A DNA stretch of 64,000 nucleotides from a virus: the IMG/VR virus record IMGVR_UViG_3300031851_000004, positions 35,271 through 99,270 of that record; one strand, given 5' to 3'. Within the stretch, counting starts at the first letter, position 1. Each line of letters begins with the position of its first letter. Both the position numbers and the translations under genes were made by a program. The notes beneath the pieces were generated by a model that worked only from the letters and a program-made list of their open reading frames with translations, did no database searches and was not told the DNA's origin. Positions 27,211 to 39,972 of this stretch are shown one piece after another.

Positions 27211-27858
27211 ATGAAAACAAAAACATACATTACGGCACTTTTGTGTCTAATTTCTAACGTCGCAATAGCAGGTTCTACCTCTATTGGCTATACATCTGAT
27301 TTTTTCAGAAGAGGGGCAATCCTTTCGGGTGAAGCTGTTCAAGCGTCAGCATCAGTCGGAGCAGATGTCGCTGGTTTTGATGCCTCCGTTGGAGCATCAA
27401 CAAACCAATCAGTCTCAGGAGGTTCTGATGCATATACCATTGAATTTGGTGCTTCTAAGCAATTAGGAGAGCTATTAAATGTTTATGTAGGTCTAGAGCA
27501 TTTTGAAGAACCAGCAGGGAATTCAGTTCTTGATGCAAGAGTTTCTCTTGGACTCGATACTGTTTTGTCTCCATCCGCAACTGTTTATAGGAATACTAGC
27601 GATGACCTATATACTTTTGAGTTGTCTGTAAAACACGGTTTAGATCTTGAGATTGCTGACATTTGTGTCCATGGTTTGTATGGCAACACAGATTCAAGTA
27701 CTTCTGTTAATGAAGATTATTACGGAATTGGGGCGATTGCCTCAAGATCTGTTTCTGAAAATGCAGAACTTTCCTTGTCTTACGATTATTATGATTCTGA
27801 TTTGATTGCCGATGGCGATGAATCTGTTGTGGGAATTTCTTTATCGGTTTCTTTCTAA
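27211..27858 (+). CDS. Outer-membrane-type beta-barrel protein with signal peptide
   Basis: 215 aa. Residues 1-20 form a Sec signal peptide (MKTKTYITALLCLISNVAIA, cleavage before GSTS). The mature part consists of alternating polar/hydrophobic strands with Gly-rich turns and ends in Phe (VVGISLSVSF), the BAM recognition signature of outer-membrane barrels. It should insert in the host outer membrane. This suggests a Gram-negative host and a role in superinfection exclusion, permeability or surface change. Its own leaderless promoter and the downstream terminator make it part of a compact cassette. Confidence 0.75.
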   Translation: MKTKTYITALLCLISNVAIAGSTSIGYTSDFFRRGAILSGEAVQASASVGADVAGFDASVGASTNQSVSGGSDAYTIEFGASKQLGELLNVYVGLEHFEEPAGNSVLDARVSLGLDTVLSPSATVYRNTSDDLYTFELSVKHGLDLEIADICVHGLYGNTDSSTSVNEDYYGIGAIASRSVSENAELSLSYDYYDSDLIADGDESVVGISLSVSF

Positions 27859-27891
27859 TTGATAGAAACTTTAACATAAAAATAAAACAAA

Positions 27892-28143
27892 ATGAACGAA
27901 GTAGTAAATAAAATTAAGTGTGCCGTTTGTGGCATTAGCGCCGTACTGGTTTCCGTAATTGGACTCCTGGTACTATCCCAAGTTGTCTTTGGAGCAGGTT
28001 CAGGTATCGATATAATCGGCAATCTCCAGGCGATTGTTGCTGGATTCGTAGGTCCAGGAGCGAGCCTCGCAGGTATCGTTACCCTTGTCTTGCTTGTTTC
28101 CGTTTTAGGAAAACAGGTTGATGGAAACTGCTCCAAGAAGTAG
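27892..28143 (+). CDS. Small two-helix membrane protein, 83 aa
   Basis: Two hydrophobic segments (about 14-34, CGISAVLVSVIGLLVLSQVVF, and 47-73) separated by a Gly-rich loop, with Cys near both ends. Its DNA is GC-richer than its neighbours. Size and topology would suit a holin, but no lysis genes are nearby, and the similarity to bacterial inner-membrane proteins is only topological. A strong terminator follows, suggesting high expression. Confidence 0.6.
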   Translation: MNEVVNKIKCAVCGISAVLVSVIGLLVLSQVVFGAGSGIDIIGNLQAIVAGFVGPGASLAGIVTLVLLVSVLGKQVDGNCSKK

Positions 28144-28202
28144 AATTTCCTGTCGCAAGGTTGAAGGTTAATAGACTTTCTTATGTTCTATTAGCCATCT
28201 AA

Positions 28203-28227
28203 CCCCCCTCGAAAGAGGGGGGTTTTT
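28203..28227 (+). terminator. Strong rho-independent terminator
   Basis: A perfect 8-bp GC-rich stem CCCCCCTC/GAGGGGGG with a GAAA tetraloop followed by TTTTT. It ends the barrel/membrane-protein cassette. Confidence 0.92.
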
Positions 28228-28234
28228 GTTTGGG

Positions 28235-28263
28235 TTGATTTTTGGCTGTTTTATTGTCATAAT
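28235..28263 (+). promoter_or_regulatory. Promoter, leaderless type
   Basis: TTGATT (28235-28240), 17 bp, CATAAT (28258-28263), 7 nt to the ATG at 28271. Confidence 0.6.
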
Positions 28264-28270
28264 ATAGTAT

Positions 28271-28789
28271 ATGAAAAAAGACAAAGATTATTTGTTCATA
28301 ATCTATTTTAGTGTAACTATAGACAAGAAACGCTTTTATAAATCATTAATAAATACAGATTCAAAATCAAAGTCTAAAGAAATTTTTTTAAAAAAAATAA
28401 AAAAAGACCTAAAAGGGTTTTTGATAAAAAACATAAGAATTGAAACAATAAAAAAGTCAAAATATAGAGGGAGAAAAATCACAGACAAACAATGGGAAAG
28501 GCTTTTGGGTCTATCCTACCCCAACACCAGACACAAACTTAGTAAAATCCCCAAAAACCAGTGGTTTAAACCGAAAAAACACAAAAGAAGAAATTTCAAT
28601 GGAACCTTCAAAAAAGGTTTCGTTCCTTGGAATAAAGGTTTAAAGCTAAAAGTTTTCAAGAAAGATGAAAACGGGAGATTCATTAGCAGCAGAGATACAC
28701 TTGGAAGGTTCACCAAAGGTATTCAAGTAGCTACTATTGGAGCTAAGTTCACGATAAATGATGAAAAGCTTAAAACTATTAACGAATAA
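28271..28789 (+). CDS. Basic DNA-binding protein with NUMOD3 motif
   Basis: 172 aa, about a quarter Lys/Arg. FKKGFVPWNKGLK is the NUMOD3 motif found in the DNA-binding tails of homing endonucleases, and ENGRFISSRDTLGRF resembles a further NUMOD-type repeat. No nuclease domain is visible, so this may be a remnant or a helper of the neighbouring HNH enzyme. Confidence 0.6.
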   Translation: MKKDKDYLFIIYFSVTIDKKRFYKSLINTDSKSKSKEIFLKKIKKDLKGFLIKNIRIETIKKSKYRGRKITDKQWERLLGLSYPNTRHKLSKIPKNQWFKPKKHKRRNFNGTFKKGFVPWNKGLKLKVFKKDENGRFISSRDTLGRFTKGIQVATIGAKFTINDEKLKTINE

Positions 28790-29150
28790 ATTCAGTTACA
28801 ATTCTATTTTTAATTCCATATATAAAAATTTTCTAAAACATGATTTTAAAAGCTCCAGTATATCTAATATTTCAGTATTTTTCTTAGAAAAATATGAAGT
28901 CATTAAATCGAGCAAGATTAACAATACAGATTCAGAAGACCATTTGTTAGTTTTTAGAGATGATGAAGGTATATTTCAAATAGGAGTATTCAATTCTGAA
29001 TCTAAAGAAATATGCAGAAATGATATAAATATTGAATATTTAGCAAGTTTAAATATTATAAATAGACACAAGCTATCTGAGAAAAATTTAATATCTTTTG
29101 TGTTTTGGGAACTTTTTAAAAATAATATTGAATGTGAGGAAGCAGAATAA
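28758..29150 (+). CDS. Hypothetical protein, 130 aa
   Basis: Begins at tandem ATGs (28758/28761) inside the end of the preceding gene. Mixed alpha/beta sequence (HLLVFRDDEGIFQIGVFN) and no recognised domain. Overlaps the HNH gene start. Confidence 0.55.
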   Translation: MMKSLKLLTNKFSYNSIFNSIYKNFLKHDFKSSSISNISVFFLEKYEVIKSSKINNTDSEDHLLVFRDDEGIFQIGVFNSESKEICRNDINIEYLASLNIINRHKLSEKNLISFVFWELFKNNIECEEAE

Positions 29151-29697
29151 TCAGCCCAGAAAGCAAGATATCCTTAAATTAAGAAAGGAAGGGCGGACTT
29201 ACAAAGAAATACAGGACGAGCTTGGTTGTTCTAAGTCGGTCATATCATATCACTGTGGAGAAGGTAAGACAGAACAAAAAAGAGTTAAAAAAAGGAATGC
29301 TTCTGAAGGTCATAAGTTATCAAGAAAAGTAAGCGCTTTTAAATGTAGAGCCTCTAAAGATTTGTTTAGGGGAAAATTGAAAACTTTTAAAAGGAGAAAT
29401 CCTAAAAATAGAACTCATACTATAGTTAATAATTTATCTAAAAACTTTACAACGCAAGATGTTTTAGATAAATTTGGAAAAAATCCTGCTTGTTACTTAA
29501 CTGGAACCCCTATAGACTTAAGCAAACCTGAAACATATCACTTTGACCACATCATTCCCGCGTCAAAGGGAGGTACAAATGATTTATCTAATTTACAAAT
29601 TTGTTTAAAAGAAGCAAATAACGCAAAAAGCGATTTAAGTTTAAAAGATCTTTATGATTTGTGTGAAAAAATATTAAAACATAAAAATTCTGCTTGA
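29134..29697 (+). CDS. HNH endonuclease with N-terminal HTH
   Basis: I place the start at GTG 29134 (overlap of 17 bp with the preceding gene); an ATG at 29098 would add 12 unlikely residues. The N-terminal part has a helix-turn-helix (GRTYKEIQDELGCSKSVISYH). The C-terminal HNH core is CYLTGTPIDL, then YHFDHIIPASKGGTNDLSNLQ. Likely a free-standing homing endonuclease. Confidence 0.85.
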   Translation: MRKQNNQPRKQDILKLRKEGRTYKEIQDELGCSKSVISYHCGEGKTEQKRVKKRNASEGHKLSRKVSAFKCRASKDLFRGKLKTFKRRNPKNRTHTIVNNLSKNFTTQDVLDKFGKNPACYLTGTPIDLSKPETYHFDHIIPASKGGTNDLSNLQICLKEANNAKSDLSLKDLYDLCEKILKHKNSA

Positions 29698-29722
29698 CAA
29701 ATAGTCTATTTCGCCTTATTAT
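29694..29722 (+). promoter_or_regulatory. Promoter of methyltransferase gene, leaderless type
   Basis: TTGACA (29694-29699), 17 bp, TATTAT (29717-29722), 8 nt to the ATG at 29731. It overlaps the stop of the HNH gene. Confidence 0.7.
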
Positions 29723-29730
29723 ATAAGGCT

Positions 29731-30792
29731 ATGAAAGCTCTTTCTTTATTCTCTAATGTAGGTATAGGTGAAATTTATCTTAACAACATAGGGGTAGATT
29801 TAGTTGTAGCGAATGAGCTGCATGAAGATAGGTGCAATTTATACAGAGAAATGCATCCAGAATGCAGTGTTATTTGTGGCGATATAACAAAGGAAGAGGT
29901 TAAGGAAGAGATTTACAACGCGTGTCCTAATGCGGTAGTTGGTGAGGGAATAGATTTAATTATAGCAACCCCTCCGTGCCAAGGCATGAGTGTCGCTAAT
30001 GCAAAAAGATTGCCAGACGATTGTAGGAATTCATTAATAGTGCATGCGATGGATGTTTTTAACGAATTATTACCCGACTACATGTTAATAGAAAATGTTT
30101 CTGGCATGGCTAATACTTTTATCAATAACAACGGAGAGATAGTTAATATAATAAAATATATTGAATCTCAAATCCCAGAACCTTGGGTTTTAAATTGGGA
30201 CATTTTAAATGCGAAAGACTACAACACTCCTCAATCAAGAAAAAGGTTTATAGGTTTAATATCTAGAGATGGCAGATGGAAACATCCAAAACCTAAAGAA
30301 AAAAATATCAGTGTAAGAGATGCAATTGGTCACTTACCTTCGTTGGAGTCTGGTAGATCAAGCGATCACCCTTGGCATTACGCAAAAAAACATAATTCCA
30401 ACCATGTGATTTGGATGAAAAATACTCCAACAGGTCAAACTGCATTTAACAATAAGATTCATTATCCAAAAAAAGATGGGAGAAGAATAAAGGGCTTTAT
30501 GACTACATACAAGAGGATAGATTGGGATAAGCCATCACCTACTGTAACCATGTGCAATGGGGCAATATCAAGCCAAAACAATGTTCACCCTGGAAGGCTA
30601 TTGTCAGATGGAACTTATTCTGATGCGAGGGTTTTATCGGTCATGGAGTTGGCTATTTTATGCGGAATTCCATGTGATTTATTAAATAAATTTAAAAATA
30701 AATATTCAGAAGGGTTTATTAGAAAAGTCCTAGGAGAATGTTTTCCACCTAGAATGTGTTTTGAGATAATAAAAAGTATTAATGAAGATTAG
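29731..30792 (+). CDS. DNA cytosine-5 methyltransferase
   Basis: 353 aa with the C5-MTase motifs in order: motif I LSLFSNVGIGEIYL, motif IV ATPPCQGMS with catalytic Cys83, motif VI MLIENV, motif VIII QSRKRFIGL, and a C-terminal motif IX/X region (GRLLSDGTYSDARVLSVMELAILCG). The target recognition region lies between 185 and 290; its sequence specificity cannot be read from here. It probably protects phage DNA from restriction. No cognate nuclease gene is adjacent, so it is an orphan methylase. Confidence 0.92.
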   Translation: MKALSLFSNVGIGEIYLNNIGVDLVVANELHEDRCNLYREMHPECSVICGDITKEEVKEEIYNACPNAVVGEGIDLIIATPPCQGMSVANAKRLPDDCRNSLIVHAMDVFNELLPDYMLIENVSGMANTFINNNGEIVNIIKYIESQIPEPWVLNWDILNAKDYNTPQSRKRFIGLISRDGRWKHPKPKEKNISVRDAIGHLPSLESGRSSDHPWHYAKKHNSNHVIWMKNTPTGQTAFNNKIHYPKKDGRRIKGFMTTYKRIDWDKPSPTVTMCNGAISSQNNVHPGRLLSDGTYSDARVLSVMELAILCGIPCDLLNKFKNKYSEGFIRKVLGECFPPRMCFEIIKSINED

Positions 30793-31021
30793 GAAAAAAT
30801 TAAAAAATGCAGAGTTTGAATACGATGAAGAAACCAAAATTTTTACAATTATGGAAGAGGATGGGTTTCATGGTCATATTCAATTAAATAAAGTATATGC
30901 TTTTGCTTTTGTGCGTTTTGTTGTTCGTATGGCTCAAAGAAATTGGTTAAGAAATAAAAAACAACTTGACAAAGACAGTGAAGACGTGTTAGAATGTAGC
31001 GATCAATTAGAAATGTTTTAA
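30782..31021 (+). CDS. Hypothetical protein, 79 aa
   Basis: Overlaps the methyltransferase gene by 11 bp. Charged protein with EEDGFHGHIQLNKVYAFAFVRF. No recognised function. Confidence 0.6.
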   Translation: MKIRKKLKNAEFEYDEETKIFTIMEEDGFHGHIQLNKVYAFAFVRFVVRMAQRNWLRNKKQLDKDSEDVLECSDQLEMF

Positions 31022-31029
31022 ATTAGCCC

Positions 31030-31623
31030 ATGATCTGTCACAAGCACAAATGTATTTTTATACACATTCCTAGAACAGCAGGAACATCAATAGAGCAGTC
31101 CATTAAGCCCGATTGGAGGTTTGGTAACTTTAAAGATGAAAAACATGTTTTAGCAAGCACTGCGAAACATTTATACAAAGATTATTGGAACGATTATTTT
31201 AAATTCTCTTTCGTGAGAAATCCTTGGAGTAGAATGCTATCAATGTCACAATATAAAAACTTTTATGGCTGTATAATAAAAGGCGGAAAGATCGATGTTA
31301 GTAAATATATTCAGCAATATTCAAGCATAGAAGTAGACCCTAGATCAAAAGGTAATATAGAGAACATTAAGCCAATTAAAAATGCAGTTTATTTAAATAT
31401 TCTAAATGAAGAGCTTAATTTTATTGGACGCTTTGAAAACTTACAGGAGGATTACGGCAAAGTCTGTGCGATCATCAACTGCAAAAACAAGCTATTGCAC
31501 AAAGAGGCTCGTAAGGAAAAAAATAAACACTATACTGAATATTACGATGATGAAACAAAGCAAATCGTTGCAGAGCGATATGCAAAAGACATAGAGCATT
31601 TCGGCTATGAATTTGGAGGGTAA
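31030..31623 (+). CDS. Sulfotransferase, PAPS-dependent (second copy)
   Basis: 197 aa. IFIHIPRTAGTSIE is the 5'-phosphosulfate-binding loop and FSFVRNPWSRMLSM the 3'-phosphate site; the C-terminal DFGYEF-like end (IEHFGYEFGG) is also typical of the family. It is more distant from the 24952 protein than a recent duplicate would be. Confidence 0.85.
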   Translation: MICHKHKCIFIHIPRTAGTSIEQSIKPDWRFGNFKDEKHVLASTAKHLYKDYWNDYFKFSFVRNPWSRMLSMSQYKNFYGCIIKGGKIDVSKYIQQYSSIEVDPRSKGNIENIKPIKNAVYLNILNEELNFIGRFENLQEDYGKVCAIINCKNKLLHKEARKEKNKHYTEYYDDETKQIVAERYAKDIEHFGYEFGG

Positions 31624-31655
31624 CATATTCATAAAAATAAAAAGAAAAAAAAGTC

Positions 31656-31684
31656 TTGACAAATATTGAAAAAATTGGTAAGAT
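31656..31684 (+). promoter_or_regulatory. Promoter of sigma-like cassette array, with leader
   Basis: TTGACA (31656-31661), 17 bp, TTGG-TAAGAT (-10 at 31679-31684). Unlike most, it leaves a leader of about 19-25 nt before the ATG at 31710, containing GAAAGC (31700-31705) just before the start. Confidence 0.65.
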
Positions 31685-31709
31685 GATTTAATAACAAAAG
31701 AAAGCAAAT

Positions 31710-31919
31710 ATGAATAAAGAAATAAAATTATGTGAATTGGTAAAATCTTCAGAGTATGAAGAATTTTACTACTCTGACTCCGACTTGCCCGTAGAAGAAG
31801 GTGATCCCGTTGGCGTGGATTTAGAATCAGGAGAGGAAGTTAAATTTATATTATTTAACGGAATATATTGGGGGGAAGAAAATGAAGAGAGAGTCTTATC
31901 CAAAACTTTACGAGTATAG
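31710..31919 (+). CDS. Hypothetical acidic protein, 69 aa
   Basis: Acidic (SSEYEEFYYSDSDLPVEEGDPV) first gene of the 31.7-36.8 kb operon. Overlaps the next gene by 38 bp. Unknown role; the acidity would suit a DNA-mimic or anti-sigma type protein, but that is speculation. Confidence 0.55.
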   Translation: MNKEIKLCELVKSSEYEEFYYSDSDLPVEEGDPVGVDLESGEEVKFILFNGIYWGEENEERVLSKTLRV

Positions 31920-32136
31920 AATAAAATATAATGCTACAGCCGACACTATAGCTAATGACAGCTACCATTACTTTATGTCTAAGAACGCAGAAGAAGCATT
32001 CGACTACCATTTAACAATGTTAAAAAATAAAGGTTTAATAACTCAAGACATATCAATAGAAAAATTTAATCCATATTCAAATAAATGGGAAGATGAGACA
32101 TTCTTTAATGCAGGTAGTGAAAATACAACAAATTGA
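31882..32136 (+). CDS. Small alpha/beta partner protein, cassette 1
   Basis: 84 aa. YEYRIKYNATADTIANDSYH, then AEEAFDYHLTMLKNKG, then ISIEKFNPYSNKW. This order (beta hairpin, EEA helix, beta strand) resembles the N-terminal parts of the proteins at 32873 and 33941. Immediately followed, with overlap, by a sigma-like gene, as in the two later cassettes. Confidence 0.55.
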   Translation: MKRESYPKLYEYRIKYNATADTIANDSYHYFMSKNAEEAFDYHLTMLKNKGLITQDISIEKFNPYSNKWEDETFFNAGSENTTN

Positions 32137-32647
32137 CAGAGCTGAATCTTACGACAGCAAGCTAACATTAATTAGCCCTCACTTATTAAAATTTTGCAAA
32201 AGTAGAATATATAACGAGCAAGATGCTGAAGATGTTTGTCAAAAATCAATTTACATTTTGATAGAAAAAAATAAAGAATATAATAAAAATAAAAGTTTTT
32301 GGAGTTGGGCTTGGAAGATTACAAGATTTCAAATAATGGCTTATTTAACTCGAAGAAAAAGAAATAGAGAAGATGTATCAGGGGATTCGTTTTTACATAG
32401 TTTAGAAAAAACTGATCAAAAAATGCCTTTTTCTGATGTTTTAAAATTAGAATTAAAAAAAGAACGTGATGATCTAGTAAAGAAAGCATTTAAAACACTA
32501 TCATTAAAACAACAACATTTTCTTTCATTATCAATGAGCGGTAAAAGTAAAAATTTTATAATGAGACATATGAACATAACAAATGTTAATTATTATTCCC
32601 TCAAAAGGAGGATGTTAAAAAAACTAAAACAACAAATAAACACATGA
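32093..32647 (+). CDS. ECF-type sigma factor-like protein
   Basis: 184 aa. The region 2 signature is NEQDAEDVCQKSIYILIEKN followed by FWSWAWKITRFQIMAYLTRRKRN; region 4 is KKAFKTLSLKQQHFLSLSMSGKSKNFIMRHMNITNVNYYSLKRRM. This fits an extracytoplasmic-function-like sigma70 protein. Start could be ATG 32093 or GTG 32117. It may redirect host RNA polymerase to a class of phage promoters. Confidence 0.75.
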   Translation: MRHSLMQVVKIQQIDRAESYDSKLTLISPHLLKFCKSRIYNEQDAEDVCQKSIYILIEKNKEYNKNKSFWSWAWKITRFQIMAYLTRRKRNREDVSGDSFLHSLEKTDQKMPFSDVLKLELKKERDDLVKKAFKTLSLKQQHFLSLSMSGKSKNFIMRHMNITNVNYYSLKRRMLKKLKQQINT

Positions 32648-32880
32648 AAGAAGTAGACGCGGCAGCTATAGAATATATCATGAATAAGTTTTTACCTTAT
32701 TCAATCGTATTTATATTATTATTTACTATTCTAGAATTAACTGATTTTAGGTTTTGGGTTATAAGCCTTTCAGTAATATTTATAGATAAGTATTCATTTA
32801 AGATAGGTAGATCTGTCGGTGAGTACGAAAACAATCCAGCATTTAGAAACTCTGTTGACGAAACTTTAGACGATGAATAA
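32644..32880 (+). CDS. Small membrane protein, 78 aa
   Basis: Two adjacent hydrophobic segments (about 16-31 and 35-48, YSIVFILLFTILELT and FWVISLSVIFI), acidic C-tail. Starts in an ATGA overlap with the sigma-like gene and overlaps the next gene by 8 bp, so it is part of the same operon. Confidence 0.6.
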   Translation: MKEVDAAAIEYIMNKFLPYSIVFILLFTILELTDFRFWVISLSVIFIDKYSFKIGRSVGEYENNPAFRNSVDETLDDE

Positions 32881-33283
32881 TTCCAAATTACAATCAAAAT
32901 TTAGGTTAAAAAGGTTTTCATGCGACCAATATTGGAAATTTACCTATACTATATTTAAAAACAAATCAGCCGAAGATATTTTTGTTTCTGTTGTTAAGGC
33001 AAGGTCTTATGATTTCGCTAAATCGATATTAACTCAAAAATTAAAAGAGGACGATCCAAATATAAACGTGAAGAATATTAATGGGTGGATGTTTCATTCA
33101 AATTTTAATTTTAATAGATCTGCAAATAAAAATTTAAATTTAATTAATATAAAAGATTGGCAAGATATAAGAAAATGCAGTTTTCCAAATGAAAATAATT
33201 ATTTATTTAAGTTTCATATTCAGTATATAACGCCTCAAGAAATAATTAAAAGAAACAAAACCAAGATAGAAAATTTTGTATAA
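32873..33283 (+). CDS. Small alpha/beta partner protein, cassette 2
   Basis: 136 aa. Shares with the first 110 residues of the 33941 protein: F-x-x-DQYW, then KARSYDFAK (KANSYKNAK in the other), NGWMFHSNF (QGFMLHGNY), and SFPNENNYLFK (SFPNENNFLFK). These are clear paralogues. The stop overlaps the following sigma-like gene as TAATG. Confidence 0.65.
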   Translation: MNNSKLQSKFRLKRFSCDQYWKFTYTIFKNKSAEDIFVSVVKARSYDFAKSILTQKLKEDDPNINVKNINGWMFHSNFNFNRSANKNLNLINIKDWQDIRKCSFPNENNYLFKFHIQYITPQEIIKRNKTKIENFV

Positions 33284-33963
33284 TGACTGAATCAGAAGAA
33301 AAAAAATTTTATGAATATTTGGCTTTATTCCAGCCAGATATAAAGAAGATAATAGCCTCAAAGAGAAGGAACACGCACCTTATGTCTCTAGATGAAATTG
33401 TTAGTGACTTCAACTATAATTTAATAAGAAAAGACAAGGAGAAGGTGGTTAACTATAGAGACGAAAGATTTGTTGAATTTTCTTTTGAATCTTTTAAATT
33501 TGTAATTTGTTCTTTTATAAAAAATGCAGTTGGCTGGTATCAGTGCAGAAAAGCGCAAGAAAAATATTTAGTAAGGAGGGATAACTCTGAAGTAAAAACA
33601 GAAGAAGGATACAAGAGTACCTTTGAGATGCTTGAAATAACCAAAGGGGTTGAAGACAAGGGTTTTACTTTTGACGACGATCACAAGCATAAATATTTTT
33701 TAAAATTAATTAAAAATTACAGTGACCACTTAACTCCAAACGATGTTGAATTAATACATTTACTATTGAAAGGGTATAATCAAACTACAATAGCTGACGT
33801 TATGAATGTAACACATCAAGCTATAAGTTTTAATGTTATTCAGTTAGAAAAAAAATTAAGGTGCAGAGTCAAGGAAGATTACTTAAAAGATGAATCTTGG
33901 CATAAAATCCCAGAAGGGAAAGAGGCAATAATGAACCTTTTTGAACATGAGAAAAAAACGTAA
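33283..33963 (+). CDS. Sigma70-like protein, cassette 2
   Basis: 226 aa. N-terminal helices resemble region 2 (LMSLDEIVSDFNYNLIRKDKEKV ... FESFKFVICSFIKNAVGWYQ). The C-terminal region 4-like HTH is LTPNDVELIHLLLKGYNQTT followed by IADVMNVTHQAISFNVIQLEKK. It ends WHKIPEGKEAIMNLF, matched by YDKISKGKEAVDQFF in the 34975 protein, so the two are paralogous. Confidence 0.7.
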   Translation: MTESEEKKFYEYLALFQPDIKKIIASKRRNTHLMSLDEIVSDFNYNLIRKDKEKVVNYRDERFVEFSFESFKFVICSFIKNAVGWYQCRKAQEKYLVRRDNSEVKTEEGYKSTFEMLEITKGVEDKGFTFDDDHKHKYFLKLIKNYSDHLTPNDVELIHLLLKGYNQTTIADVMNVTHQAISFNVIQLEKKLRCRVKEDYLKDESWHKIPEGKEAIMNLFEHEKKT

Positions 33964-34978
33964 AAAAGTTAATTGTCAAAAGGTCTACAGGAGTACTCTT
34001 TTTGATTTTGATCAATATTGGAATATAAATTATACAGAATGCTATAAAGATGGTTCTGAAAAAGACTTCAAAACCATTATAAAAGCAAATTCTTATAAAA
34101 ATGCCAAAAAGTTTTTAGCAAAAAGATTAGCTGAAGACTCTGTAAAAATAAAGGCGGTACAAGGCTTCATGCTACATGGAAACTATAAAGGCAATAACAA
34201 CAGAAAATTGACCACCAAATCTTGGGAACTAATAAAAGATGCATCATTTCCAAATGAAAATAATTTTTTATTTAAAAAAGAAATAAAGAGAGAAAAGTGG
34301 AAGAGTAATAGGTTTAATGCTACCAATTACAAACACCTCAAAACAATAGGCTTTAAAAGCGGATCTGAAAGCTACTCAACCATACATAGAAAAGGCAAGC
34401 ATTTACCCCTAAGCGAAAGGGTTGGAAAAAAGTGGACGGGAGCAAAATGGGTTAAATGGGACGAAGACGAAATGAGGGAAACAAAAACTCGAATAAGTTC
34501 AGCGCTTATGGCTTGTGATAATAACAGATTTCACACGGCAAAATATTTAAACATAGGAAGAGGTAATTTGTACAAAATGATGAAAAGAATAGAGGGATTG
34601 GAGTGGTGGAACAAGCACTACCCAATAAAAAGACACCCGCCTCCTAGAGTATCTAAAGAAGAAAGGTCTAAGACTCAATCTAGGGTGATGAAGGAATTAA
34701 TGTCCAAAGGTCATGTTCCCTTTTCTAGCTTATCTTCTTCGCAACAAAAAAAAAGATATGAAAATATGTGTGCAACAAAAAGGCAAAAAAAAGAAATAAG
34801 ACTTGCTTTCTGGAAGCCCAAAATAATTAATGCATTAAAATTATGCGAAAATAGCAGAGTAAATGCCGCTTTTTATTTGGGAATAAAAACCTCGCATCTA
34901 AAAAAATTAATGGTAGAAACTAAACCTGATGTTAATTGGGCTAAAGAATTTCCTACAAAATATTTCAAAGTAAAATGA
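33941..34978 (+). CDS. Partner protein with two Fis-like HTH repeats, cassette 3
   Basis: 345 aa. Residues 1-110 are paralogous to the 32873 protein. After that come two similar helix-turn-helix units, SSALMACDNNRFHTAKYLNI followed by GRGNLYKMM, and INALKLCENSRVNAAFYLGI followed by KTSHLKKLM, which match the Fis/NtrC C-terminal HTH pattern (AL...N...AA..LGI....L...). Likely DNA-binding and thus a candidate transcription regulator that works with the adjacent sigma-like protein. Confidence 0.65.
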   Translation: MNMRKKRKKVNCQKVYRSTLFDFDQYWNINYTECYKDGSEKDFKTIIKANSYKNAKKFLAKRLAEDSVKIKAVQGFMLHGNYKGNNNRKLTTKSWELIKDASFPNENNFLFKKEIKREKWKSNRFNATNYKHLKTIGFKSGSESYSTIHRKGKHLPLSERVGKKWTGAKWVKWDEDEMRETKTRISSALMACDNNRFHTAKYLNIGRGNLYKMMKRIEGLEWWNKHYPIKRHPPPRVSKEERSKTQSRVMKELMSKGHVPFSSLSSSQQKKRYENMCATKRQKKEIRLAFWKPKIINALKLCENSRVNAAFYLGIKTSHLKKLMVETKPDVNWAKEFPTKYFKVK

Positions 34979-36123
34979 AGCTTGAAACATCATACGCACC
35001 AGGAACTCTTCATGAATATTTCGACTTAAACGGAACGCCTAAACCAAACAAAGTAAAAAAATCGAAAGAAGAACTCGGTAATGAAAAAATAGAAACTTCT
35101 TTTGAACCCTCTAATGAACAGGTAAATTGTTTTAATAATTGGTTGGAAGATTACCAAGAAGACTTGAAAAAAATTATAGGCAAATATAGATTCACAATCC
35201 ATTCGCTTACTGCCGAAGAGCTTACTAGTGAAATAAACCTTTCTTTGCTTAAAAAAAGGTCAAAATTAATTGAATATATTTCAAATAAAGGGTTTAATCA
35301 GTCTAATTTCAAACATTCTGCTTTTGTTTATGCTAGAAATTTAATTAAGTGGAGTCATTATTCTATAATAAATAAACCCTACCATAAAAGAAGACAAGAT
35401 GGTTATTTCTATGACGGAGAAGAGTGGAAAACTTCTTTTGATGTTGCGGTCGAATCTGAGGGAGAAGTGGATAAAGAAGTTGAAGAGTCTGATGCTAACG
35501 AAAAGCAAGAATATTTATTAAAAATAATAAAAGAGTATTCAAATGTTTTAACCGATAAAGAAAAGTTAGTTTTCTTATATCTAGAGAAAGGTTTAACACA
35601 CATAGAGATTGCTGAAAAACTAAAAGTGACACATCAAATGATATCAATAATTTATATTGAAATTAAAAACAAAATTAAAAATCACTTTGGCAAAATGTCA
35701 TTAAAAGACAATTCTTATGATAAAATATCAAAAGGCAAAGAGGCGGTTGATCAGTTTTTTACAACTTCAAAAGACTCAATAACAGATAAAGACAGAGAAG
35801 ATTTAAAAAAAATACTACACCTTCATCCTTATCAATTTACATCAAAAGCGGTTGCTGAAATCTTTTTCAAAAACAAATATACTTATAGGCAAATAGTATC
35901 TTCTTCGATTCGATTGGGCATTAGTTCTTTTTTAAGAAAAGAACGCCCTGCAAGCCAAAAATTCAACAGAAAAACTGAGGATTTAATACTTGAAATGTTC
36001 TTGAAGGGTTTCTCTTGTGAGGAGGTCTCTAGAAAAACTAATATATCTATTGGGGCGATAAGATCAAAAAGAGGACATCTTGTCAATAAAAATATATTAA
36101 CGAGAATATCGCGTGAAAAATGA
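34975..36123 (+). CDS. Sigma70-like protein with extra C-terminal HTH, cassette 3
   Basis: 382 aa. Region 2-like part (about 55-130, LTAEELTSEINLSLLKKRSK) and region 4 HTH (LTDKEKLVFLYLEKGLTHIE followed by IAEKLKVTHQMISIIYIEI). The paralogous tail YDKISKGKEAVDQFF is followed by about 130 residues not present in cassette 2, with another HTH (MFLKGFSCEEVSRKTNISIG followed by AIRSKR). ATGA overlap with the partner gene. Confidence 0.7.
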   Translation: MKLETSYAPGTLHEYFDLNGTPKPNKVKKSKEELGNEKIETSFEPSNEQVNCFNNWLEDYQEDLKKIIGKYRFTIHSLTAEELTSEINLSLLKKRSKLIEYISNKGFNQSNFKHSAFVYARNLIKWSHYSIINKPYHKRRQDGYFYDGEEWKTSFDVAVESEGEVDKEVEESDANEKQEYLLKIIKEYSNVLTDKEKLVFLYLEKGLTHIEIAEKLKVTHQMISIIYIEIKNKIKNHFGKMSLKDNSYDKISKGKEAVDQFFTTSKDSITDKDREDLKKILHLHPYQFTSKAVAEIFFKNKYTYRQIVSSSIRLGISSFLRKERPASQKFNRKTEDLILEMFLKGFSCEEVSRKTNISIGAIRSKRGHLVNKNILTRISREK

Positions 36124-36800
36124 TAGAAAAAGTAAAAATCTTAAAGTCTAATTGTCACTACAGAATAGGTGATATAGTTTTCAGACAAGGCTTCCGATGG
36201 GCGGATGATACTGAGTCTATATTATTAAGCCCTAAATATAGAAAAAGTATTTTATTCAAATACCTCAACCATTTCGATCATCCATCTTTAGATCCTTTTA
36301 AAAACGTTGAATTACCCCATCCAAGAGGTATTTTAAATATTAATGTATTAAGGAATTGCGTAAACATGGATTGTAATCCAAAAAACGACACTCTTTATGT
36401 TACGATAAGATGCGGTGATATTGTACAATTACCAGCAGAAGATAGAAGTAATTTTTGGTTATTTAATAAAGACTCTTTGATATCATGCATAAAAAACAAA
36501 TTAAAAAAGAGCCAAATAAGTAAAGTTGAATTTGTATGCACTATGCACTTTGGAGACTTTAAAGAAAAAAAACTTTTTTTATATTCAGAAAAAGACGTAA
36601 ATGAAAATATAAATTTATTAAATAATATATTTTTAAATGTAAAAAAAATAATTGATTGTGATATTGTTAGTAACAAGGCTGATGAAATAGAAAATATAGA
36701 CCATCATTTTTCAACTTTGATAAAAGCTAAAAACGTCATCCTCGATCAAGGAGGATTTTCTAGTGTGGTATCAATTTTAAGATCCCCCTTCCTAACTTGA
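36120..36800 (+). CDS. Hypothetical glycosyltransferase-like protein
   Basis: 226 aa. YRIGDIVFRQGF near the start, then LYVTIRCGDIVQLP, the x-I-R-x-GD strand seen in fucosyltransferase-like proteins, and a final KAKNVILDQGGFSSVVSILR, similar to the 'a...I...SsFs' helix of those enzymes. It is somewhat reminiscent of the 24033 protein. Tentative. Confidence 0.45.
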   Translation: MIEKVKILKSNCHYRIGDIVFRQGFRWADDTESILLSPKYRKSILFKYLNHFDHPSLDPFKNVELPHPRGILNINVLRNCVNMDCNPKNDTLYVTIRCGDIVQLPAEDRSNFWLFNKDSLISCIKNKLKKSQISKVEFVCTMHFGDFKEKKLFLYSEKDVNENINLLNNIFLNVKKIIDCDIVSNKADEIENIDHHFSTLIKAKNVILDQGGFSSVVSILRSPFLT

Positions 36801-36989
36801 AGCAGGTCGCCAATTAACACACCATTTATAACTCTGAACGCCTATTATAGATTCTTTCTTGTTTTCATCTAATTGAGAAACGGCACTTCTTAAATTGGTT
36901 TGCAAAGTATCAATCAGCACTTTAAGCTCAGAATTTTCATTCTCCAACTTTTTGATTTGCATATTTAATTTTTTTTCTTCTTGGTTCAT
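36792..36989 (-). CDS. Small coiled-coil protein, minus strand, 65 aa
   Basis: Heptad-rich (MNQEEKKLNMQIKKLENENS), a leucine-zipper-like coiled coil with a Trp/Cys tail. Convergent with the previous gene (9 bp overlap). Its promoter (TTGAAG, 16 bp, TAATAT on the minus strand, 36995-37022) is interleaved with that of the plus-strand gene at 37043. Confidence 0.6.
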   Translation of the reverse strand: MNQEEKKLNMQIKKLENENSELKVLIDTLQTNLRSAVSQLDENKKESIIGVQSYKWCVNWRPASS

Positions 36990-36994
36990 TTTCT

Positions 36995-37022
36995 ATATTA
37001 AATTTACCTTGCAAAACTTCAA
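36995..37022 (-). promoter_or_regulatory. Minus-strand promoter, overlapping divergent promoter
   Basis: On the minus strand TTGAAG (37017-37022), 16 bp, TAATAT (36995-37000), 5 nt to the ATG at 36989. It shares sequence with the plus-strand promoter at 37009-37036, so the two may exclude each other. Confidence 0.4.
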
Positions 37023-37036
37023 AAAATATTTATAAT
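37009..37036 (+). promoter_or_regulatory. Promoter, leaderless
   Basis: TTGCAA (37009-37014), 16 bp, TATAAT (37031-37036), 6 nt to the ATG at 37043. Confidence 0.6.
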
Positions 37037-37042
37037 AAAACT

Positions 37043-37336
37043 ATGGATAATACACACAGCACAGAAACTAAGCCAACGTCCGAATGGAGGAAACGAGAAA
37101 TGGGAGCTTTGTGGAAAAAAGAAGGCAAATCCCAACAATTCTATTCAGGATTTTTAAAAATCAATAAAGACACAGATGAAGAGAAAGAAATTAGGGTAGT
37201 AGTCTTCTTAAATAAGATGAAGTCTAATGAAAAGTCTCCCGATCTAATCATGTATGAATCAACTGAGCAAAGTAGTGCTACTTTTATATCTCACGATGAT
37301 GATAACGACAAGATACCCGATAGCTTTATAGATTAA
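37043..37336 (+). CDS. Hypothetical protein, 97 aa
   Basis: MDNTHSTETKPTSEWRKREM, then beta-strand-like DTDEEKEIRVVVFLNKM, NEKSPDLIMYES. This pattern (WR...GALWKKE...FSG.....) is common in small proteins of unknown function in phages and bacteria. No function assigned. Confidence 0.65.
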   Translation: MDNTHSTETKPTSEWRKREMGALWKKEGKSQQFYSGFLKINKDTDEEKEIRVVVFLNKMKSNEKSPDLIMYESTEQSSATFISHDDDNDKIPDSFID

Positions 37337-37360
37337 TTTTTTTTATTTTTTAAAAAAAAC

Positions 37361-37389
37361 TTGACCTCTATTGCGTTTTATGCGATAGT
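37361..37389 (+). promoter_or_regulatory. Promoter, leaderless
   Basis: TTGACC (37361-37366), 17 bp ending TGC, GATAGT (37384-37389), 6 nt to the ATG at 37396. Confidence 0.65.
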
Positions 37390-37395
37390 ATTGTC

Positions 37396-37689
37396 ATGAA
37401 GAATAAAAAACAAACATATAACAAAGATGGATCTACTAGAAAATCTGGTAGTGGTAGAAAGAGTGGAGCGACTTCCTTTGTTAGGGTCACTTTCGATGAG
37501 TTAAGCGGTTTCATAGGGTCAAAGACTCCTATGTTAGTTAGTAGGGTTTGGTTAGAAAATTTAGGTTTAAATAACTTGGGAGAATCTCAAGACCCCATAT
37601 CAAAACAAAAACCTAAATTAGACTTGACTAAAGAAGATGAGTCTGATAAGATTCTATTTTCACTTAACAAATTCAACGATGAGGAATAA
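37396..37689 (+). CDS. Small basic protein, possible DNA binding, 97 aa
   Basis: Basic N-terminus rich in Lys, Gly, Ser (STRKSGSGRKSGATSFVRV) with an acidic C-terminus. Precedes the RuvB-like ATPase gene by 1 bp, so the two are probably coupled. Unknown function. Confidence 0.6.
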   Translation: MKNKKQTYNKDGSTRKSGSGRKSGATSFVRVTFDELSGFIGSKTPMLVSRVWLENLGLNNLGESQDPISKQKPKLDLTKEDESDKILFSLNKFNDEE

Positions 37690-37690
37690 T

Positions 37691-38620
37691 ATGACAGATC
37701 CATTTAAAAATCTAGTAGGACAAAAAAATGTAAAGAAAAAGCTTAATTTTTATTTAAAAGCTTTTCGTAAAACAAGAATGAATCCATTTCTTGGGTTCTT
37801 TGGAGCAAAAGGGTTAGGCAAGACTGAGTTTGCGAATGCTTATGCTAGAAATTTAACTAATATAGATGGAAGCAAAAGAACCATCATGGAAATTAATTGT
37901 TCTACCATTAAGAATAACGATAGTTTTTTCGATCAAATATTTATTCCTTATATTTTAAATAATGAAGTAACTGTTTTGTTCGATGAAGCTCATGCGTTGC
38001 CAAATGACTTAACAATGGCTTTACTATCCATATTAGACACTAGACACTCTCATCTTAGAGATTTTACTTGGAAGGATACAGTCTTCCCATTTAATTTTAA
38101 ACATCAAAGTTTTATTTTTGCGACTACAGAAAGTGATAAATTGTTTCCTCCATTAAAAGACAGACTAACTTCTGTTGATTTTGATTCTTATTCTCCTAAA
38201 GAATTAGGCGAGATTTTATCATTGTCTATTGAGTGTGATGTAAATAAAGATGTTTTAACTCAACTTAGTAGTGTGGTGAGGGGTAATGCTAGAAATGCGA
38301 TCATGAAAGCTAAAGATATAAATCTTTATATAGCTTCTGAAAATGTTAAAAAATTCACAATGTATCATTATAATAAATTTTGTGAGATATTGGGTGTTTT
38401 ACCTTTTGGAATTAGTTGCACAGAGAAACAAATACTTGAAGTTTTAAAGGAAAAAGGTGCTTGCACTTTGTCTATGCTCGCAGCAAAAACAGGATTGAGC
38501 GCTACATCGTTAAGATGCGATCACGAAAAATATCTTTTAAGACAAAACTTAATGGAGATAGATGTAAAAAGAAAGATAACTCCATTAGGTAGGGAAGTTA
38601 TGAAAAAAGTTCCTGCTTAA
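37691..38620 (+). CDS. RuvB-like AAA+ ATPase
   Basis: Start at ATG 37691, which gives TDPFKNLVGQKNVKKKL, the classical AAA+ N-terminus; an upstream in-frame ATG (37637) lies inside the previous gene. Walker A-like FGAKGLGKTEFA and Walker B VLFDEAHAL are present; sensor 1 IFATTESDKL; a C-terminal winged helix (CTLSMLAAKTGLSATSLRCD). 309 aa, similar to RuvB (about 340). It may act as a branch migration motor or clamp-loader-like factor. RuvA and RuvC partners are not seen here. Confidence 0.8.
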   Translation: MTDPFKNLVGQKNVKKKLNFYLKAFRKTRMNPFLGFFGAKGLGKTEFANAYARNLTNIDGSKRTIMEINCSTIKNNDSFFDQIFIPYILNNEVTVLFDEAHALPNDLTMALLSILDTRHSHLRDFTWKDTVFPFNFKHQSFIFATTESDKLFPPLKDRLTSVDFDSYSPKELGEILSLSIECDVNKDVLTQLSSVVRGNARNAIMKAKDINLYIASENVKKFTMYHYNKFCEILGVLPFGISCTEKQILEVLKEKGACTLSMLAAKTGLSATSLRCDHEKYLLRQNLMEIDVKRKITPLGREVMKKVPA

Positions 38621-38862
38621 TTTTTGTTGTTTAATTTTTCAAATATTTTAATTACATCTTCTCTTCTGTCTTCTAGAAGTCTTTGTGTTTGAATCCACCT
38701 CTCGCAGTCTCTAGCTCCATTTTCAGCTAAAGCGATTTCAATGCGTCTTAATTTTTCAGCGATTCTTTCTATTCTAGCGTTCTCTCTTTTCAAGAAAAAA
38801 GCTACAATAGAAATTGTTCCGCCTAAAATAATAAAAATAATATTAGATAACTCTACTTCCAT
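38617..38862 (-). CDS. Small membrane-anchored coiled-coil protein, minus strand
   Basis: 81 aa if started at the ATG at 38862, which lies exactly 6 nt after a minus-strand TATAAT (38869-38874); another ATG lies at 38877, beyond that box. One membrane segment (IIFIILGGTISIVAFFL), then a charged helix (RIERIAEKLRRIEIALAENG). Convergent with the AAA+ gene with a 4-bp overlap. Confidence 0.65.
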   Translation of the reverse strand: MEVELSNIIFIILGGTISIVAFFLKRENARIERIAEKLRRIEIALAENGARDCERWIQTQRLLEDRREDVIKIFEKLNNKN

Positions 38863-38884
38863 AACTATATTATACACTTTTTTC

Positions 38885-38913
38885 TTGACAACCCTTTGTG
38901 ATTAAAGTATAAT
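38885..38913 (+). promoter_or_regulatory. Promoter of UV endonuclease gene
   Basis: TTGACA (38885-38890), 17 bp, TATAAT (38908-38913), 9 nt to the ATG at 38923. The best consensus match in the window. Confidence 0.75.
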
Positions 38914-38922
38914 TCTACAATT

Positions 38923-39972
38923 ATGACAAATACAATATTAGGCTTAACCTGTATCAGTGAAGAACTTAAAGAAAAAGATAAGGCAAAATATTCTTTTAAA
39001 ACTATGACCCGCAAACGTTTTAATGATTTGTGTAATACAATAGGTAGGAATGAAGCTCTTAGTCAATTATCTGAAAGAATTTTGCATAATGTTGTTGTTA
39101 CTCAATATATTATCAATCATTGTGCTAGGACAAATATTAGGCATTATCGTGTTAGTTCTTCTCTTTTCCCTCTCGTTACCGATGAAAGTTTGGAAATATC
39201 TCTTGAAGACCTCTCTGATTACCCTAGGATTAAAGAAGAGTTAAGGCTTGCGGGTTTAATGGCTTTATCATTTAAAATATCAATAAGCACTCATCCCGAT
39301 CAATTTAACGTTCTCGCCTCTACTAATCAAAAATCCGTAGAAAGAACGATAAAGGAATTAAATTTTCAATCTAGTATATTAGATAAGCTAGGTTTACCCC
39401 AAGATCACACTTCCCCTATAAACATTCATCTCAATTGTGGTGTAGGCACTCCAAAAAAACTAGAGATAGATGCCGAATCTCTTAATAATTTTGTTATATC
39501 AGAAGTTGCAGATAGATTTTATAAAAATTTAATGAGATGTGATCAAGGATTAATAAAACGACTAACATTAGAAAATGAAGATAGGGGTCATTGGAATGTA
39601 GATAATATTTTAAAATTTAGTGAATATTTATTTAATAAATATGATTTAAATATACCTATATGTTATGATAATTTGCATGATAATTGCAATCCATCTGAGG
39701 TTCTTAACATAAAATGGCAAGCTGAAAGATGTGCTTATACATGGGTCAAGCAAGGAAATTTAGATTTAATAGAAGGCTCTCATTTTATAGCTCCTGTTTT
39801 TCATTGGTCTGAGGGTAGGAACGATGGGAGTAATAACCCTCGCGCTCATGGAGATTACTTTAGCTTTAAGAATTATCCTCCAATAATCGCTATTGATCCA
39901 AATAATGAAGCTAAGTGGGAATGCGAAGTGAAAGCTAAAGACCTAGCAATTAGAAAATTGATAAATGATTAA
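38923..39972 (+). CDS. uvsE: UV damage endonuclease (UvdE family)
   Basis: 349 aa, TIM-barrel repair nuclease that nicks 5' to UV photoproducts and some other lesions. Family signatures: LGLTCISEELKEKDKAKYSFKT is broken here by length but opens as usual; YRVSSSLFPL; ISTHPDQFNVL; INIHLNCGVG; LTLENEDRG; ICYDNLHDNC; FHWSEGRND. The metal-binding His and Glu residues are present. It may protect phage genomes exposed to sunlight, which fits an aquatic setting. Confidence 0.9.
   Translation: MTNTILGLTCISEELKEKDKAKYSFKTMTRKRFNDLCNTIGRNEALSQLSERILHNVVVTQYIINHCARTNIRHYRVSSSLFPLVTDESLEISLEDLSDYPRIKEELRLAGLMALSFKISISTHPDQFNVLASTNQKSVERTIKELNFQSSILDKLGLPQDHTSPINIHLNCGVGTPKKLEIDAESLNNFVISEVADRFYKNLMRCDQGLIKRLTLENEDRGHWNVDNILKFSEYLFNKYDLNIPICYDNLHDNCNPSEVLNIKWQAERCAYTWVKQGNLDLIEGSHFIAPVFHWSEGRNDGSNNPRAHGDYFSFKNYPPIIAIDPNNEAKWECEVKAKDLAIRKLIND

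What the first reader, a model, noticed from the sequence alone, without database searches (positions are those of the whole stretch)
31882..36123. Three tandem cassettes of partner protein plus sigma-like factor
31882/32093, 32873/33283 and 33941/34975 each pair a small alpha/beta protein with a sigma70-like protein. The second and third pairs are clearly paralogous (DQYW, SFPNENNxLFK in the partners; K-I-x-x-GKEA in the sigma proteins). The partner of the third has gained two Fis-like HTH units and its sigma an extra HTH. One operon from a single promoter encodes all. This looks like an expanding transcription-switch module in which the partner is a co-regulator or anti-sigma; I know of no described system with this layout.
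Basis: partly seen in the sequence, partly recalled or inferred. Interest (0 to 1): 0.72.

Follow-up and report, generated by a model that had tools for sequence, protein, structure and literature searches.

The report
Phage sigma factors with dedicated DNA-binding partners

Summary
The ORFs are real. Pairs 2 and 3 (P2-S2 at 32873-33963, P3-S3 at 33947-36123) are true paralogous cassettes (partners E 7e-21, sigmas E 3e-26). I found 22 such pairs in 15 records, always partner first, same strand, nearly always overlapping or within 26 bp. S1 and S3 match Sigma70 models; a model of S3 gives only sigma factors and RNA polymerase models among its 50 best structural matches. S3's tail belongs to the T5 D5 family, annotated as required for late transcription. 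P3 carries two Fis-type HTH units behind a conserved alpha/beta domain.

Corrections. Pair 1 is not a third cassette: P1 is unrelated to P2/P3 by profile comparison, and S1 is usually found without it. The HTH units were more probably lost by P2/S2 than gained by P3/S3. The partner family also has a member beside an HNH endonuclease (28271-28789). Nothing supports anti-sigma activity.

Most likely: a host-type promoter makes S3 and P3 early; S3 joins host RNA polymerase, and P3 binds DNA at target promoters and helps it. P2-S2 is a reduced duplicate. Function is inferred. A new variant of a known kind (phage sigma plus co-activator).

The parts
31656..31684 (+). host-type promoter TTGACA-17-TAAGAT (TG before the second hexamer) ahead of the operon
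   Evidence: consensus match only; such sites are no commoner here than in shuffled DNA, but this one lies in the 86 bp gap before the operon
31882..32136 (+). P1, small protein; not a relative of P2/P3 by profile; direct neighbour of S1 in 3 records only
32093..32647 (+). S1, small ECF-size sigma-like protein (regions 2 and 4)
   Evidence: Sigma70_r2 E 5e-9; profile match to S2/S3 E 6e-5 over 156 columns
32644..32880 (+). TM, small hydrophobic protein ahead of P2-S2, conserved in relatives
32873..33283 (+). P2, partner protein, N-terminal domain only
   Evidence: E 7e-21 to P3; 5-row P2 clade
33283..33963 (+). S2, sigma-like protein without the D5-like tail
   Evidence: E 3e-26 to S3
33947..34978 (+). 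P3, partner protein: alpha/beta domain, FK-x-G-x(2)-N-W type linker, two Fis-type HTH units
34490..34588 (+). first Fis-type HTH of P3
   Evidence: PF02954 E 2.1e-7, over cut-off
34736..34948 (+). second HTH region of P3 (long helix plus HTH)
   Evidence: structure model, confidence over 90; PF02954 with two stretches in relatives
34975..36123 (+). S3, sigma-like protein with D5-like tail
35113..35370 (+). sigma region 2 of S3 (residues 47-132)
   Evidence: structure model and alignment; Pfam r2 only weak, E 0.04
35545..35685 (+). sigma region 4 of S3 (residues 191-237)
   Evidence: PF04545 E 2e-6
35770..36090 (+). T5 D5-like DNA-binding tail of S3 (residues 266-372)
   Evidence: phrog_323 E 9e-7, 5e-13 in L014; T5 D5 itself matches phrog_323 with E 1e-71
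28271..28789 (+). PH, third member of the partner family, beside an HNH gene
   Evidence: found by the partner profile, E 1.9e-38 (PH rows are in that profile); BLAST hits between PH and P2/P3 in relatives
29119..29697 (+). HTH-HNH endonuclease near PH
   Evidence: phrog_6050 E 1e-32

Best explanation
P3-S3 is a phage transcription-switch pair. Host RNA polymerase with its own sigma reads the operon from the promoter at 31656 early in infection. S3 then docks on the host core enzyme through sigma regions 2 and 4, and its D5-like tail and the two Fis-type HTH units of P3 bind DNA around the chosen promoters; P3 acts as the dedicated co-activator of S3. P2-S2 is a tandem duplicate that lost the DNA-binding extensions of both partners and probably reads a different or overlapping promoter set, or modulates the first pair. 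Shown here: the homologies, the domain make-up, the invariant order and closeness of partner and sigma, the duplication. Inferred: that S2/S3 bind host RNA polymerase, that P touches S, that P activates, and the timing.
For: 22 partner-sigma pairs in 15 records, always partner first on the same strand; in the 16 measured, gap -50 to +26 bp. Sigma regions 2 and 4 in S3, in G012's short S (Sigma70_r4 E 7e-7, r2 E 0.008) and by fold: the 50 best PDB matches are all sigma factors or RNA polymerase/sigma models (E-values weak, best 0.002). Fis HTH_8 above cut-off in P3 relatives. T5 D5 family in the S3 tail; T5 D5 is annotated 'DNA-binding protein; required for DNA replication and late transcription'. 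A host-type promoter precedes the operon. Related genomes also carry a non-host, single-element promoter, GTGTATAATA, 4-8 nt before ATG (6 exact copies in G002, 0.1 expected), so some phage factor must redirect the polymerase.
Against: No experiment and no co-folding; contact between P and S is inferred from gene order alone. A separate sigma beside the terminase gene is found in all 20 clade records examined and is the better candidate for the late promoter. Only 2 of those 20 records carry P-S, though many are fragments. PH has no sigma beside it. No promoter motif could be tied to S2 or S3.
Confidence: 0.6

Rival explanations
1. The partner is an anti-sigma or a sigma-specific chaperone: its alpha/beta domain holds the sigma inactive until a signal, and the HTH units of P3 are a secondary feature.
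For: Constant partner-first order with overlapping genes is typical of co-translated binding pairs; P2 is only the alpha/beta domain, without any HTH.
Against: No similarity to any described anti-sigma family in Pfam or PHROGs; P3-type partners carry Fis-type DNA-binding domains, unusual for an anti-sigma; a family member (PH) sits with an endonuclease, not a sigma.
Confidence: 0.15
2. P and S are DNA-binding proteins of homing or mobile modules, kept near HNH genes, and S no longer works as a sigma factor.
For: PH stands close to an HTH-HNH endonuclease in five records; PH and P3 share an FKKG-type linker reminiscent of NUMOD-type DNA-binding motifs (recalled, not a Pfam hit); several S hits are generic HTH families.
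Against: P-S pairs have no nuclease; S keeps regions 2 and 4 together, in order, over its whole length; the P-S locus keeps its neighbours in many records.
Confidence: 0.1
3. The genes are merely neighbours in an early regulatory operon and act separately.
For: P1 and S1 show that neighbours in this operon can drift apart; other small genes share the same run.
Against: 22 of 22 pairs adjacent, including a second pair in G012 too divergent to be a recent copy.
Confidence: 0.12

Closest known systems
T4 late transcription factors gp55 (sigma) and gp33 (co-activator)
   Same: Phage sigma plus a small phage partner acting with host RNA polymerase (PMC2988020).
   Different: gp33 has 112 residues, binds the beta flap as a region 4 mimic and does not recognise DNA sequence; S3 has its own region 4, and P3 is larger with an alpha/beta domain and Fis-type HTH units.
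phiEco32 sigma gp36 and activator gp79
   Same: Phage sigma read from a single-element promoter and helped by a small middle-gene protein (PMC8948821).
   Different: gp36 lacks region 4 homology. I did not compare gp79 with P by sequence; a tblastn of P and S against 50,697 phage records found nothing.
T5 D5 protein (phrog_323)
   Same: S3's tail belongs to the D5 family; D5 is annotated as a DNA-binding protein required for late transcription.
   Different: In T5, D5 stands alone; here the D5-like region is fused behind a sigma factor.
Fis / NtrC-type DNA-binding domain (PF02954)
   Same: HTH units of P3.
   Different: Two units per chain behind an unrelated alpha/beta domain; no AAA+ domain.
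ECF-size sigma factors
   Same: Sigma regions 2 and 4 only; S1 most of all.
   Different: S2 and S3 are very divergent in region 2, and S3 carries an extra tail.

Membership tests
sigma70 family | region 2 (core binding, -10 recognition) | tested here: met
   S1 Sigma70_r2 E 5e-9, above cut-off; S2/S3 below Pfam cut-off but aligned through the whole region with S1 (E 6e-5), S3 sigma-like by fold
sigma70 family | region 4 HTH | tested here: met
   S3 PF04545 27.6 bits, cut-off 24.1; G012 short S 29.1 bits; S2 only sub-threshold GerE
sigma70 family | binds core RNA polymerase and directs promoter-specific initiation | not testable with these tools
   needs biochemistry or co-folding
T4 gp33 co-activator | small region 4 mimic that binds the beta flap and does not recognise DNA | tested here: not met
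   P3 has an alpha/beta domain and two DNA-binding HTH units; no family match to gp33; flap binding itself not tested
T4 gp55-type sigma | no region 4 of its own (gp33 supplies it) | tested here: not met
   region 4 is the best-matched part of S3
anti-sigma factors | sequence or fold of a known anti-sigma family | tested here: not met
   no Pfam or PHROG match; model matches L18a/LX-like ribosomal proteins weakly and Fis
T5 D5 family (phrog_323) | profile match in the DNA-binding region | tested here: met
   S3 tail E 9e-7 in the window, 5e-13 in L014, 3e-11 in L009; direct BLAST to T5 D5 not significant
Fis-type HTH (PF02954) | score above the curated cut-off | tested here: met
   31 bits in P3, 45.5 and 59.5 bits in G012, cut-off 22
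ribosomal L18a/LX-like fold (partner N-domain) | structural match | tested here: inconclusive
   several archaeal and eukaryotic ribosomal chains among the matches, but E 0.3 or worse

The most novel reading that the evidence does not exclude
An uncultured phage lineage has evolved an activator-dependent sigma70-family system in which each sigma has its own co-encoded Fis-type DNA-binding activator, and has duplicated it in place so that two successive or competing phage holoenzymes run a transcription cascade; the sigma is a natural fusion of a phage sigma with the T5 D5 late factor.
Probability: 0.25. Interest if true: 0.72.

Novelty: new variant of a known kind. Interest (0 to 1): 0.52.

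Why it matters
Phage sigma factors with co-activators are known from a few cultured phages. Here is a new partner family, fixed beside a new type of sigma factor, in an uncultured phage group with no close relative among 50,697 phage records (terminase at most about 26% identical). The sigma-D5 fusion suggests that sigma factors and T5 D5-type proteins work in the same step, a link that can be tested directly.

Tried and rejected
Tried: single-protein scans with S1 and S3 (no relatives), alignment scans that were too divergent, tblastn of P and S against cultured phages (none), PDB search with P profiles (none), Rfam on 27500-39000 (none). Rejected: pair 1 as a third cassette; gain of HTH units by P3/S3 (and the L010 remnant); P as gp33-like or as a known anti-sigma. 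The promoter GTGTATAATA could not be assigned to S2/S3: the terminase-side sigma is as likely or likelier, and with one mismatch the motif is not enriched in the window's own genome. Taxonomic placement beyond 'tailed phage with terminase, DnaE-like polymerase and RIIA/RIIB' was not resolved; the record is incomplete (no terminase match).

Full report
What was checked. The window is bases 35271-99270 of a 99,270 bp virus record, a fragment of a tailed phage: DnaB-like helicase, primase, DnaE-like DNA polymerase, clamp loader, RIIA and RIIB. All ORFs named in the finding exist. I call them P1-S1, P2-S2 and P3-S3 in order.

The two real cassettes. P2 and P3 share 38% identity over 111 residues (E 7e-21); S2 and S3 share 31% over 217 (E 3e-26). 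Scans of the viral collection with P3 profiles gave relatives, and the gene maps show P followed by S every time: the window (2 pairs), L007, L008, L009, L012 (1 each), L010 (1 visible; the contig ends in P3), L011, L013, L014 (2 each), then G009 (1) and G012 (2), then L140 (2), L142 (1), L145 (2) and L151 (1). That is 22 pairs in 15 records. For the 16 pairs measured, the distance from partner stop to sigma start is -50 to +26 bp; in L145 the P3 is shortened and S3 lies about 214 bp further on.

The first pair is different. P1 has no similarity to P2, and its family profile shows none to the partner-domain profile (E 0.42 over 15 columns). P1 and S1 are adjacent and overlapping in the window, L140 and L145. 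In L010, L011 and L014, S1 stands between S2 and P3; in L011 and L014 the P1 homologue lies elsewhere. L013 has P1 but no S1 beside its cassettes. In G006 they are a few genes apart, and G002 and G003 have S1 without a P1 beside it. So pair 1 is a separate small sigma with an occasional neighbour. S1 itself is a good sigma (Sigma70_r2 E 5e-9) and a remote relative of S2/S3 (profile E 6e-5 over 156 columns, regions 2 and 4 in register).

What the proteins are. S3: region 4 above cut-off (E 2e-6), region 2 weak (E 0.04), PHROG sigma families E 5e-13 and 7e-9. An AlphaFold model (mean pLDDT 70; regions 2 and 4 better; pTM low because the domains are loosely linked) gives sigma factors or RNA polymerase/sigma models for all of the 50 best PDB matches, though with weak E-values (best 0.002). 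The tail of S3 matches phrog_323, 'D5-like': E 9e-7 in the window, 5e-13 in L014, 3e-11 in L009. T5 D5 itself matches that family at 1e-71, and its GenBank note reads 'DNA-binding protein; required for DNA replication and late transcription'. In L011, L013 and L014 the S3 tail is longer, with more HTH units. P3: a confident model (mean pLDDT 86) with an alpha/beta domain, a poorly ordered linker and two HTH units; Fis-type PF02954 above cut-off in the window and in relatives. The alpha/beta domain resembles archaeal and eukaryotic L18a/LX ribosomal proteins, but too weakly to count (E 0.3 or worse).

Direction of change. Every P3-type partner that is complete, including the very divergent pair in G012, has the HTH part; only P2 (one clade, support 100/99) and PH lack it. 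In the tree that includes PH, P2 falls inside the P3 rows (88/94). The S2 of L010 still has a stretch that aligns with S3's tail. P3-S3 is found without P2-S2 in L007, L008, L009 and L012, never the reverse. Loss in P2-S2 is therefore likelier than gain in P3-S3. Support is moderate, since the deepest rows have long branches. G012's first pair combines a full-length P with a short S, so the two losses need not go together.

A third home for the partner family. PH (28271-28789) belongs to the same family by profile (E 1.9e-38, where PH rows were part of the profile; independent BLAST hits between PH and P2/P3 in relatives) and stands close to an HTH-HNH endonuclease in five records, directly adjacent in three. 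This weakens 'anti-sigma' and points to DNA binding as the common theme.

Mechanism. The operon starts behind TTGACA-17-TAAGAT. Similar host-type sites stand before 13 of 41, 18 of 76 and 18 of 86 upstream regions in G000, G002 and G001. G002 also has six exact copies of GTGTATAATA (0.1 expected from order-2 models); all eight copies in the three genomes lie 4-8 nt before an ATG, among them the gene directly after the terminase in both G002 and G001. This resembles single-element phage promoters such as that of phiEco32, where transcripts start 6-8 bp downstream. It shows that a phage factor redirects the polymerase in this group, but not which one: a terminase-side sigma is present in 20 of 20 clade records, whereas P-S is present in only 2 of those 20 (many are fragments). 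I therefore place S3-P3 as an additional, lineage-specific switch, perhaps for middle genes, with P3 as DNA-bound co-activator. Confidence 0.6 for 'sigma plus dedicated co-activator'.

Novelty. tblastn of P and S (including divergent members) against 50,697 phage records gives nothing, and paper searches returned no such module. The principle (phage sigma plus partner) is known from T4 and phiEco32; the partner family, the sigma-D5 fusion and the tandem reduced copy appear new. Hence 'new variant of a known kind'.

Noticed in passing
L035-L040 (G002 coordinates 11479, 33701, 59680, 90573(-), 96936, 99023); G001 42600; window about 38868(-): Single-element promoter GTGTATAATA, always 4-8 nt before ATG; six exact copies in G002 against 0.1 expected. 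Probably the late promoter of this phage group, with nearly leaderless messages.
   Followed up: partly
L029:3318-4016, L030:3311-4030, L034:6033-6752(-), L135:3501-4280: A further sigma-like gene just upstream of the terminase gene; all 20 terminase-selected records have a sigma region 2 match. It is followed by a 350-aa protein that in G017 matches the S3 tail profile: sigma and D5-like part side by side.
   Followed up: partly
L050-L129: At least 564 viral contig stretches encode a terminase of this group, while the best cultured phage match is about 26% identical: a large uncultured phage clade.
   Followed up: no
L151 (PBIO01000024.1): A P-S pair on a contig binned as Halobacteriovorax sp.; a possible host hint, or a binning error.
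   Followed up: no
L008:11148-15517 and L009:11144-15565: Five sulfotransferase-like genes in about 4.4 kb; the window has one at 31030-31623.
   Followed up: no
window:28271-29697: Partner-family member PH close to an HTH-HNH endonuclease; it shares an FKKG-type linker motif with P3.
   Followed up: partly
L005:3689-4261(-): 190-aa protein with a sub-threshold sigma region 2 match and a phrog_36 regulator match, in a minus-strand run near an SSB-like gene.
   Followed up: no
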